Shown here: piece by piece, positions 1 through 11,472 of the stretch
Layout: each line of letters starts with the position of its first letter
Position numbering within the stretch: the stretch's first letter is position 1
Origin: Clostridia bacterium
Lineage (GTDB): Bacteria > Bacillota > Clostridia > UBA1212
NCBI GenBank assembly: GCA_017625675.1
Contig: JAGAKK010000033.1
Coordinates: forward strand, 1 to 45,608
DNA: 45,608 nucleotides
Direction of reading: 5' to 3'
Notes under the pieces: generated by a model
What the model saw: only the letters and a program-made list of their open reading frames with translations
Database searches by the model: none
What the model was told of the DNA's origin: nothing
Program-made: the position numbers and the translations under genes

Positions 1-84
1 AAGGTCAATTGTTTTATTTCTAAAAATTTAAAATGGTCACAAAATTCCAGCCATTTCAATGTATTGTTTGCACATTTTTCCTTT

Positions 85-112
85 TGCACCGGTTGTCTGT
101 CCCCCTGGTGCA
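85..112. repeat. 28-bp palindromic repeat, family A, copy 1
   Basis: An imperfect palindrome with arms TGCACC and GGTGCA around a core reading GTCTGTCCCCC. The copy at 1809-1836 is identical over all 28 bases, and about five diverged copies lie at 11248-11472. Placement only between genes and the hairpin-forming arms suggest a REP-like element. Element family and mobility are inferred; no REP-associated transposase gene is visible here. Confidence 0.85.
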
Positions 113-122
113 GTGAAGTTTG

Positions 123-256
123 ATTTGCGAAAAATGATTGTATTTGCGAAAAATATTGACGAGATTTGCGAAAAGTGATATAATTTGCGAAAAAGATGAA
201 ATGATTTGCGAAAAGGATGAAATGATTTGCGAAAAAAGTGATGCGATTTGCGAAAA
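123..256 (+). repeat. Seven 11-bp direct repeats over a promoter
   Basis: The unit ATTTGCGAAAA occurs seven times, beginning at 123, 142, 164, 183, 204, 225 and 246. Start-to-start spacings are 19, 22, 19, 21, 21 and 21, close to two DNA helical turns, so the copies face roughly the same side of the helix. Copy 2 ends just before the -35 box, copy 3 lies in the promoter spacer, copy 4 overlaps the -10 box, and copies 5-7 are in the leader before the start codon. The core TTTGCGAAA is nearly self-complementary. This looks like a cooperative operator array, most simply for the DNA-binding protein encoded next to it; that last step is inference. Confidence 0.9.
156..184 (+). promoter_or_regulatory. 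Sigma-A promoter of the AlbA-domain gene
   Basis: TTGACG at 156-161 and TATAAT at 179-184 are separated by 17 bases, with an extended TG motif at 176-177. It is embedded in the seven-copy repeat, so a protein bound to the repeats would block polymerase. Confidence 0.8.
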
Positions 257-282
257 AATGATTATTGGAGGAGTGTGTTGGG

Positions 283-1746
283 ATGTTAGTTGATGAGTTG
301 GATGCGTTGATAGAGCGAATTTTGTCAAATAGATGTGAAATGCAGAACGTAGAATTAAAAAAAGCAGGGAAAGGGACTCCGGAAAAGTTATATGACACTT
401 TGTCGAGTTTTTCCAATCAATACGGTGGTGGCGTTATTGTTTTTGGAATTGATGAAAAAGCCGGATACGAGGTTACCGGTGTTTATGACGTGCAGGAGTT
501 GCAAACAAGAGTTTCACAACAGGCGTTACAGATGGAGCCGATTGTAAGGCCGGAGTTTACTGTTACGGAATATAAAGGAAAGAAAGTCGTTTCCGCTGAG
601 ATAGCGGAAATTGACGACGGAAATAAGCCTTGTTTCTACAAGGCTGTCGGTAGGCTTCGTGGTTCGTATATCAGAGTAGGTGAATCGGACGAGCCGATGA
701 GTGAATATGAAATTTATTGTTATGAGGCGTACAAAAAGAAAATTCGTGATGAACTCCGTGTGGTGGAACGAGCTGAATACGATGCGTTTGAAAAAAACAT
801 GCTGAATGAATATTTTTTTAAAATTCGTCAAGGAAAGCCCCAACTGTCGAGATTGGATGCAGATAATATTCTTTCATTGCAGGGAATGTGCATTGGTGGC
901 AAACCAACGGTTGCCGGACTTATGACGCTGGGCTTCTTCCCTCAAGCATTTTTTCCGCAAATGAGTATAACGGCAATGGTGGTAAACGGGACTGAATTTG
1001 GAGAACCGGGAGCTATGGGAGAACGCTTTGTTGACAATAAGAGGATTGAGGGCTCCGTGCCTCAGATGCTGGACGAAGCAATGGCGTTTGTACGGCGAAA
1101 CATTCGCAATTCAGTTGTCATTGATAATGAAGGCAATCGTAAAGACAGACCGGAATATCCGTTGGTAGCGGTAAGAGAAGTTATTCTGAATGCATTGATA
1201 CACAGAGATTACAGCGTTTATACAGAGGACTCGCCGATAAGGGTGATTTTATTTAAAGATCGGCTTGAGGTGGAAAATCCCGGTGGGATTTACGGACGAT
1301 TGACGATAAACGATCTTGGCAAGAGACCTGCAGATACGCGGAATCCTTTTCTGGCATCAAATCTGGAAGTTTTGATAAATACGGAAAATCGTTTTTCCGG
1401 CATTCCTACTATCAGAAGAGAAATGGAGCTGGCGGGGTTAAGGGCTCCCGTATTTGAAAGTTTTCGCGGCAATTTCAAAGTGACTTTGTATAATGAACGC
1501 ATTAACGCCTCGGATATTGGAAAAGATAAAGGCAATGGGGAAACGGAAATGGCGGTAAAAGACAAAATCCGAAAATTCTGTACAAAGCCGAGAACACGCG
1601 AAGAAATAACAGAACTTCTCGGAGTTGGCTCGATATATTATATTGTAACAAGGTATCTGAGGCCAATGATTGAGTCAGGCGAGCTTGCGATGACGATTCC
1701 TGAGAAGCCAAAAAGTAAATATCAGCGATACTATACTGTAAACTAA
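283..1746 (+). CDS. ATP-binding protein with Schlafen AlbA_2 domain and C-terminal helix-turn-helix
   Basis: The 487-residue product has the architecture of the COG2865-type predicted transcriptional regulators. Residues about 10-130 match the AlbA_2 (Schlafen-like, divergent AAA_4) fold, with the typical N-E-L-K-K start near residue 23 and the GGGVIVFGI strand. Residues about 290-380 carry a GHKL-like ATPase segment with the signature REVILNALIHRDYS. The last 70 residues look like a winged helix (T-R-E-E-I-T-E-L-L-G). The ATG at 283 was chosen because GGAGGAG at 267-273 is well spaced; an in-frame TTG at 265 has no such site. The family is known mainly as accessory regulators or defence-associated proteins of uncertain role. 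The repeat array over the promoter points to autoregulation. The gene is single, ends at its own terminator and is bracketed by identical palindromes. Family call is firm, function is not known. Confidence 0.85.
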   Translation: MLVDELDALIERILSNRCEMQNVELKKAGKGTPEKLYDTLSSFSNQYGGGVIVFGIDEKAGYEVTGVYDVQELQTRVSQQALQMEPIVRPEFTVTEYKGKKVVSAEIAEIDDGNKPCFYKAVGRLRGSYIRVGESDEPMSEYEIYCYEAYKKKIRDELRVVERAEYDAFEKNMLNEYFFKIRQGKPQLSRLDADNILSLQGMCIGGKPTVAGLMTLGFFPQAFFPQMSITAMVVNGTEFGEPGAMGERFVDNKRIEGSVPQMLDEAMAFVRRNIRNSVVIDNEGNRKDRPEYPLVAVREVILNALIHRDYSVYTEDSPIRVILFKDRLEVENPGGIYGRLTINDLGKRPADTRNPFLASNLEVLINTENRFSGIPTIRREMELAGLRAPVFESFRGNFKVTLYNERINASDIGKDKGNGETEMAVKDKIRKFCTKPRTREEITELLGVGSIYYIVTRYLRPMIESGELAMTIPEKPKSKYQRYYTVN

Positions 1747-11157: not shown

Positions 11158-11216
11158 GACAGACGCCCGATTTCTTTTAAAGGCTTAATTCAAAAGAAAT
11201 CACGGGGACGTCTGTC
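11158..11216. repeat. Long imperfect inverted repeat
   Basis: The arms share GACAGACG, CCCG and ATTTCTTTT in order on the left (11158-11178), with two 2-base insertions in the right arm (11192-11216). The central GATTTCTTTT/AAAAGAAATC stem is perfect over 10 bp. The right arm runs into the family A array. Confidence 0.7.
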
Positions 11217-11472
11217 CCCGTGGTGCAGAAAAAGCGTGCCTTGAAAATGCACCGGACGTCCGTCCCCCTGGTGCGGAAAAAATGTGAAACTGCACCGGGT
11301 GTCTGTCACCGTGGTGCAAAAAAAACCTGTGTGAAACTGCACCGGGTGTCTGTCCCCGTGGTGCAAAAAAACCTGCGTGAATTTGCACCGGGTGTATGTC
11401 CCCCTGGTGCGGAAAAAGCGTGCCTTGAAAATGCACCGGACGTCTGTCCCCCTGGTGTCCCCCTGGTGCAAA
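11201..11472. repeat. Tandem array of family A palindromes, about 46-bp period
   Basis: A partial copy at 11201-11226 is followed by copies starting at 11248, 11291, 11338, 11384 and 11432, that is, spaced 43, 47, 46 and 48 bases. Each copy has TGCACCGG on the left and TGGTGC (the last one modified) on the right around a variable centre. The 15-20 base intervals are themselves similar to each other (runs of A followed by GTGTGAAAC or GCGTGCCTTGAAAA), so the whole 46-bp unit is repeated. The last copy has an internal 11-base duplication (GTCCCCCTGGT). The array ends 43 bases before the rpoB -35 box. It contains no gene, although several frames stay open across it. Confidence 0.9.

What the first reader, a model, noticed from the sequence alone, without database searches (positions are those of the whole stretch)
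123..256. Seven helically phased repeats exactly cover the promoter of an AlbA-domain regulator
The sequence shows seven ATTTGCGAAAA units at 19-22 base spacing; they flank the -35, sit in the spacer, overlap the -10 and continue into the leader. Such dense phasing suggests cooperative binding by a protein, presumably the adjacent AlbA/HTH protein. A repressor that oligomerises along its own promoter, perhaps released by the ATPase domain, would be a switch not described to my knowledge.
Basis: partly seen in the sequence, partly recalled or inferred. Interest (0 to 1): 0.7.

Follow-up and report, generated by a model that had tools for sequence, protein, structure and literature searches.

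The report
Self-operator array of bacterial Schlafen gene
Seven identical short DNA words line the promoter of a bacterial Schlafen-like gene, and comparison with relatives indicates that they are landing sites for the gene's own protein: each branch of the family has its own word, and it changes together with the part of the protein that reads DNA.

Summary
Seven exact ATTTGCGAAAA copies start at 123, 142, 164, 183, 204, 225 and 246. They flank and fill a strong promoter (TTGACG-17-TATAAT) and run into the leader of a gene for a SLFN_AlbA_2 + HATPase_c_4 + winged-helix protein (ATG 283). The other four copies in the 1.65-Mb draft genome are single.

No homologue found carries this word as an array, but many carry arrays of another word: TTGNCAA, TTAGAAGAA, ATTAACGAT, TTTTAGTATACAAACT and others. 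Significant arrays precede 14 of 24 close and 24 of 66 wider homologues, against 3 of 75 control genes. In 13 of 15 relatives tested the gene-proximal unit overlaps, or lies within 7 bp of, the predicted -35.

Sharing of a word tracks the predicted recognition helix of the protein's own winged helix, not the rest of the protein (partial Mantel p=0.0002-0.007).

Best reading: a multi-copy operator read by the gene's own product, most likely for cooperative autorepression of a Schlafen-type RNase/ATPase. Self-recognition is well supported by comparison. The sign of regulation, oligomerisation and release by ATP are inferred. The word alone is not diagnostic: TTTGCGAAA arrays also occur where no close homologue is found.

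The parts
123..133 (+). operator unit 1, ATTTGCGAAAA, upstream of the -35
   Evidence: exact match
142..152 (+). operator unit 2, ends 3 bp before the -35
   Evidence: exact match
156..161 (+). predicted -35 TTGACG
   Evidence: promoter scan, 11 of 12 with the -10
164..174 (+). operator unit 3, inside the -35/-10 spacer
   Evidence: exact match
179..184 (+). predicted -10 TATAAT, preceded by TG
   Evidence: promoter scan
183..193 (+). operator unit 4, overlaps the end of the -10 and the presumed transcription start
   Evidence: exact match; start site inferred
204..214 (+). operator unit 5, in the presumed leader
   Evidence: exact match
225..235 (+). operator unit 6, in the presumed leader
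   Evidence: exact match
246..256 (+). operator unit 7, in the presumed leader
   Evidence: exact match
267..273 (+). ribosome-binding site GGAGGAG
   Evidence: read from the sequence
283..1746 (+). coding sequence, 487 aa: SLFN_AlbA_2, HATPase_c_4 (GHKL ATPase), C-terminal winged helix (Fic-like_C). Recognition helix residues 451-464 (window about 1633-1674)
   Evidence: Pfam, family alignment, AlphaFold2 secondary structure

Best explanation
The array is a multi-copy operator for the protein encoded next to it. The C-terminal winged helix of this Schlafen-like (AlbA_2) ATPase recognises each ATTTGCGAAAA. Seven sites on about the same face of the helix (19-22 bp, two turns) let several molecules bind side by side. 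Because the sites cover the -35, the spacer, the -10 and the leader, occupancy should block RNA polymerase, so the protein most likely shuts off its own gene steeply with concentration. This would keep a potentially harmful Schlafen-type nuclease low until a signal, perhaps sensed through the GHKL ATPase, lifts it. Shown here: the array, its place on a predicted promoter, family-wide promoter arrays with clade-specific words, and co-variation of word and recognition helix. Inferred: direct binding, cooperativity, repression rather than activation, nuclease activity, and control by ATP or infection.
For: (1) The core is invariant over 7 copies while the spacers differ. (2) The array is the only one in the genome and sits on the gene's own promoter. 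(3) Significant promoter arrays precede 14 of 24 close and 24 of 66 wider homologues against 3 of 75 genes in GntR loci of the same class (Fisher p 2e-8 and 8e-7); scores >=5: 10 of 24, 10 of 66, 0 of 75. The next 200 bp upstream (2 of 23, 2 of 66) and the downstream 200 bp (2 of 23, 8 of 60) show less. (4) The words differ by clade, and word sharing follows the recognition-helix region 447-460 given overall similarity: r=0.15, p=0.0074, n=28; r=0.24, p=0.0002, n=29 and r=0.34, p=0.0008 with one member per clade. Other regions give p 0.13-0.75. (5) L128 shares TTGNCAA and helix SR[YF][YF]TMS with L011/L012 though only about 0.5 similar elsewhere; L293, fetched later, has helix SQFYTMSH and a TTGGCAAA array. 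(6) In 13 of 15 close relatives the gene-proximal unit overlaps or lies within 7 bp of the predicted -35. (7) The model shows a winged helix with recognition helix 451-464.
Against: No binding was tested. Ten of 24 close homologues did not reach p<=0.02; some, such as L125 and L143, look repeat-bearing by eye but are too AT-rich for the test. In relatives the array mostly lies upstream of the -35, which also fits activation. TTTGCGAAA arrays at 21 bp occur in genomes without a close homologue. The partial correlation is modest, and L293 is a gene lacking its first ~76 residues. L283 fits the helix rule poorly.
Confidence: 0.68

Rival explanations
1. Positive autoregulation: the protein binds the array and recruits RNA polymerase, giving a self-amplifying switch.
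For: In 13 of 15 close relatives the array ends at or within 7 bp of the -35 with few or no units downstream, as for a class II activator.
Against: Here five of seven units lie downstream of the -35, covering the -10 and the leader. Several relatives have near-consensus promoters (11-12 of 12) that should need no activator. In the wider family some arrays lie inside promoters.
Confidence: 0.13
2. The array is an operator for another regulator, and the protein does not bind it.
For: TTTGCGAAA arrays occur near unrelated genes and in genomes without a close homologue, for instance at a fur-like/metal-uptake operon in L024.
Against: A foreign regulator does not explain why arrays of different words precede homologues in many families, nor why the word follows the homologue's own recognition helix.
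Confidence: 0.1
3. A non-functional tandem repeat (minisatellite) that expanded in an AT-rich intergenic stretch.
For: Units 4-7 have an exact 21-bp period and partly similar spacers; dispersed 21-bp TTTGCGAAA arrays exist in Bacillaceae.
Against: Zero changes in 77 core positions while the spacers diverge in sequence and length; enrichment over controls and position at the -35 across the family.
Confidence: 0.06
4. An RNA-level control: the AlbA_2 domain binds AUUUGCGAAAA copies in the leader RNA and blocks translation.
For: Three to four units lie in the presumed leader; Schlafen and Alba domains can bind RNA.
Against: Units 1-3 are not transcribed from the predicted promoter. In most close relatives the whole array lies upstream of the -10. 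Co-variation is with the winged helix, not with AlbA_2. No Rfam family in 1-2200.
Confidence: 0.03

Closest known systems
Schlafen-family RNase + minimal histidine kinase + wHTH proteins near BREX and related defence loci (PMC12839542; it cites Taboada et al. 2025, bioRxiv 10.1101/2025.07.24.666596)
   Same: Same domain order as the protein here; Schlafen acidic residues conserved.
   Different: The passages read there treat these proteins as RNase effectors and mention no operator arrays. The gene here is not near BREX in what the window shows. The preprint could not be read.
BldC of Streptomyces (PMC5859096)
   Same: Works alike in the proposed model: many molecules side by side on direct repeats, binding regions of variable length.
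   Different: BldC is a 68-residue MerR-like protein with a regulon; here a 487-residue AlbA_2/GHKL/winged-helix protein with a private array, and multimers are only inferred.
Omega/ParB of pSM19035 (PMC9499535)
   Same: 7-10 short repeats overlapping its own promoter; weak binding to one, strong to two or more.
   Different: Ribbon-helix-helix protein on adjacent 7-bp heptads; also a plasmid centromere. No homology to the protein here.
DIP2311 of Corynebacterium diphtheriae (PDB 3lmm)
   Same: Best solved relative by sequence (1.8e-12) and by fold (5e-22).
   Different: Uncharacterised; listed as a protein structure only.

Membership tests
Bacterial Schlafen (SLFN_AlbA_2) - GHKL - wHTH proteins | SLFN_AlbA_2, HATPase_c_4 and C-terminal wHTH in this order | tested here: met
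   Pfam matches above cut-offs in this order; winged helix in the model
Bacterial Schlafen (SLFN_AlbA_2) - GHKL - wHTH proteins | Schlafen carboxylates as in SLFN13 (E205, E210, D248) | tested here: inconclusive
   E19 90/90, E24 E or D in 89/90, spacing 5 as in SLFN13; a third acid at 57/58 is frequent but its equivalence to D248 was not shown by superposition
Bacterial Schlafen (SLFN_AlbA_2) - GHKL - wHTH proteins | RNase activity | not testable with these tools
   needs a biochemical assay
Anti-phage defence systems | Linkage to defence genes | tested here: inconclusive
   The gene begins 283 bp from the contig end and its downstream neighbour is a 2877-aa ORF of unknown role. PADLOC gives only partial matches to Argonaute-associated models; neighbourhoods of homologues were not surveyed
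Autoregulatory operator arrays (works like BldC or omega) | Direct-repeat array on the gene's own promoter | tested here: met
Autoregulatory operator arrays (works like BldC or omega) | The array is recognised by the adjacent gene's product | tested here: inconclusive
   indirect support from word/helix co-variation; no binding data
Autoregulatory operator arrays (works like BldC or omega) | Cooperative multimer on the repeats | not testable with these tools
   needs footprinting, stoichiometry or a structure
BldC/MerR and omega/ribbon-helix-helix families (by sequence) | Protein homology | tested here: not met
   only SLFN_AlbA_2, HATPase_c_4 and Fic-like_C are found in Pfam

The most novel reading that the evidence does not exclude
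A family of bacterial Schlafen-type nuclease/ATPase genes in which the effector is its own repressor: it assembles on a private operator array whose word is replaced again and again in evolution in step with the recognition helix, and a phage or nucleotide signal acting on the GHKL ATPase dissolves the assembly and releases the nuclease.
Probability: 0.25. Interest if true: 0.8.

Novelty: new variant of a known kind. Interest (0 to 1): 0.62.

Why it matters
If right, it says how bacterial Schlafens, recently proposed as anti-phage effectors, may be held in check: by themselves, on a private array. It also gives a natural experiment in protein-DNA recognition. Dozens of homologues each sit next to their own target word, so the code of this winged helix could be read off by pairing helices with arrays and tested by helix swaps.

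Tried and rejected
Word as family hallmark: rejected; of the array loci found by a three-copy scan (106 stretches), only two encode a relative (L040, L051), and in L040, the one inspected, the array is not upstream of it. Regulon: no other array and only four lone copies in the own genome. RNA element: no Rfam match. A second promoter after the array: there is no room between 256 and 283. Rayleigh test for a 10.5-bp period: not used as proof, because the non-overlap rule of the finder inflates short periods (period 9 scored higher); the histogram (56 spacings of 10-12, 23 of 21) is given instead. Close relatives carrying the same word: none found among class, phylum, plasmid, phage and viral collections.

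Full report
OBSERVATION. The array is real. Seven exact ATTTGCGAAAA copies start at 123, 142, 164, 183, 204, 225 and 246. With one mismatch allowed the window holds 10 matches against 2.1 expected, never reached in 100 shuffles. The spacers are ATGATTGT, ATATTGACGAG, GTGATATA, AGATGAAATG, GGATGAAATG and AAGTGATGCG: the core never varies while the spacers do. The spacers contain the -35 TTGACG (156-161) and most of the -10 TATAAT (179-184), a predicted promoter of 11 of 12 consensus with an extended -10. The family alignment and the GGAGGAG at 267-273 put the start codon at ATG 283. The own draft genome (1.65 Mb, 88 contigs, 76% complete) has no second array and four lone copies, three of them inside long ORFs.

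THE PROTEIN. Pfam gives SLFN_AlbA_2 (53.8 bits), HATPase_c_4 (73.3) and Fic-like_C (33), all above the cut-offs. A PADLOC scan shows partial similarity to models for Argonaute-associated proteins. The closest solved structure is the uncharacterised DIP2311, 3lmm; histidine-kinase and related GHKL ATPase domains follow in the fold search. The AlphaFold2 model (mean pLDDT 79.8) shows a winged helix at 422-485 with recognition helix 451-464. E19, E24 and K26 are almost invariant over 90 homologues and an acid at 57/58 is frequent. E19-E24 has the spacing of E205-E210, two of the three catalytic acids of rat SLFN13 (PMC5862951). [quoted passage not shown] So the gene may encode an effector and not only a regulator.

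HOMOLOGUES HAVE ARRAYS OF OTHER WORDS. I gathered homologues with the genome search and the phage and plasmid collections. After removing duplicates and requiring an intact N-terminus and at least 200 bp upstream, 90 remained: 24 close (profile E < 1e-150) and 66 wider. A score for repeated 9-mers (at most one mismatch, at least three non-overlapping copies on either strand in 200 bp), tested against dinucleotide shuffles, gave p<=0.02 for 14 of 24 close and 24 of 66 wider homologues, against 3 of 75 genes from GntR-family loci of the same class. Scores of 5 or more: 10 of 24, 10 of 66 and 0 of 75. A rerun with 60 shuffles gave 13 of 24 and 18 of 66. In that rerun the next 200 bp upstream gave 2 of 23 and 2 of 66, and the 200 bp downstream 2 of 23 and 8 of 60. 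Examples: L135 ATACAAACT x6, L236 GTTTTAGTG x7 at exactly 21 bp, L012 ACTTGCCAA at 11 bp, L131 TTAGATGAA/TTAGAAGAA x10, L218 GATGTTGCA x8. No relative has ATTTGCGAAAA as an array.

POSITION. For close relatives with p<=0.04 the array stops at the promoter. In 13 of 15 the gene-proximal unit overlaps the predicted -35 or ends within 7 bp of it; the exceptions are L017 (12 bp, on an alternative -35 call) and L127 (41 bp). The -10 to start-codon distance is 18-47 bp there and 98 bp here. Taking away three 21-bp units leaves 35, so this window's array looks like the same design with three extra units copied downstream (inference).

CO-VARIATION. The words group by recognition helix: SKNHVM with ATTAACG (L008, L017, L018, L137), SR[YF][YF]TMS with TTGNCAA (L011, L012, L128), [ST][IV]AYLM with TTA-x-AAGAA (L130, L131, L133, L129). 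By eye, TP[ST]YF goes with TTTNNATAAAA (L125, L279, L292; not significant by the automatic score for most members of that clade). A partial Mantel test asked whether word sharing follows similarity in one part of the protein after allowing for the rest. For the helix region 447-460: r=0.15, p=0.0074 (n=28). Adding L293, fetched afterwards from viral contigs (helix SQFYTMSH, TTGGCAAA array; the gene lacks its first ~76 residues), gives r=0.24, p=0.0002, and with one member per clade r=0.34, p=0.0008, n=19. The other winged-helix residues, AlbA_2, the middle part and the ATPase give p between 0.13 and 0.75. L128 is the sharpest case: about 0.5 similar to L011 and L012 outside the helix, like any distant pair, yet it shares both helix type and word. 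L283 (helix SQYYTMSK, word GTTGCGTAA at 21 bp) fits less well.

WHAT THE WORD ALONE DOES NOT SAY. A scan of 84,980 species for three TTTGCGAAA copies returned 106 stretches in many phyla, often at 21 bp, but only two loci encode a relative. Fourteen genomes with such arrays were searched: none has a close homologue, and three have distant ones (27-31% identity). In Neobacillus and other Bacillaceae the arrays are dispersed between genes. The case for self-recognition therefore rests on the family comparison, not on this array alone.

MECHANISM. Best supported: the winged helix of the gene product binds the units; several copies bind side by side because the units recur at about one or two helical turns (56 spacings of 10-12 and 23 of 21 bp among significant arrays). 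In this window the bound protein would cover the whole core promoter and leader, so repression is the likelier outcome. In relatives the array abuts the -35, which fits occlusion of the -35 or class II activation. Near-consensus promoters and wider-family arrays inside promoters favour repression. I put self-recognition at about 0.85 and the full statement, with autorepression, at 0.68. ATP control, release by infection and nuclease activity are conjecture.

PRECEDENTS. BldC binds direct repeats as head-to-tail multimers (PMC5859096). Omega/ParB of pSM19035 binds 7-10 heptads overlapping its own promoter, weakly to one and strongly to two or more (PMC9499535). The mechanism class is thus known; the new elements are the protein family and the clade-by-clade replacement of the word in step with the recognition helix. 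Searches of open-access papers found no account of such arrays for Schlafen/AlbA_2 genes. The key preprint on bacterial Schlafens is not in the library, so prior description there cannot be excluded.

LIMITS. Start codons and promoters are predicted. Shuffle numbers are small (50-100). Controls are genes from GntR loci, not matched for base composition or mobility. The motif finder is crude, and ten of 24 close homologues escape it. The partial Mantel tests treat clades as exchangeable.

Noticed in passing
window 84-113, 1809-1838, 11209-11468: A palindrome-like element TGCACCGGTTGTCTGTCCCCCTGGTGCA flanks the gene on both sides and recurs in variant form as a 48-bp tandem array further on. It looks REP-like; whether it mobilised the gene is unknown.
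   Followed up: partly
L020, L032, L063, L065, L082, L083, L096 (Neobacillus massiliamazoniensis); L026, L041, L088, L101 (Bacillus sp. MM2020_4); L038, L078, L090, L119 (Metabacillus mangrovi): Many dispersed intergenic arrays of TTTGCGAAA at 20-21 bp in Bacillaceae genomes in which no homologue of the window protein was found. The binder or purpose is unknown.
   Followed up: partly
L024:2813-2864: Three TTTGCGAAA copies (20 and 23 bp apart) around a promoter-like TTGACA of a fur-like regulator gene followed by genes that look like a metal-uptake ABC operon.
   Followed up: no
L034, L044, L051, L079, L094, L123: 33-bp arrays of TTTGCGAAA with similar spacers, mostly in Bacteroidales genomes.
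   Followed up: no
genomes G170, G052, G086: Expansions of the AlbA_2/HATPase_c_4 family: 12, 8 and 8 members per genome. Several G170 members have different promoter words (L175, L218, L219, L220, L228).
   Followed up: partly
L282, L286 (genome G611): Two close homologues that end before the winged helix (414 and 429 aa). L282 still has TTTTCATAAAA-like units upstream.
   Followed up: no
L014-L016 (G006:C152): Four TTTGCGAAA copies at 20-21 bp directly upstream of an ORF that looks flavodoxin-like, in a genome of the same family as the window.
   Followed up: no
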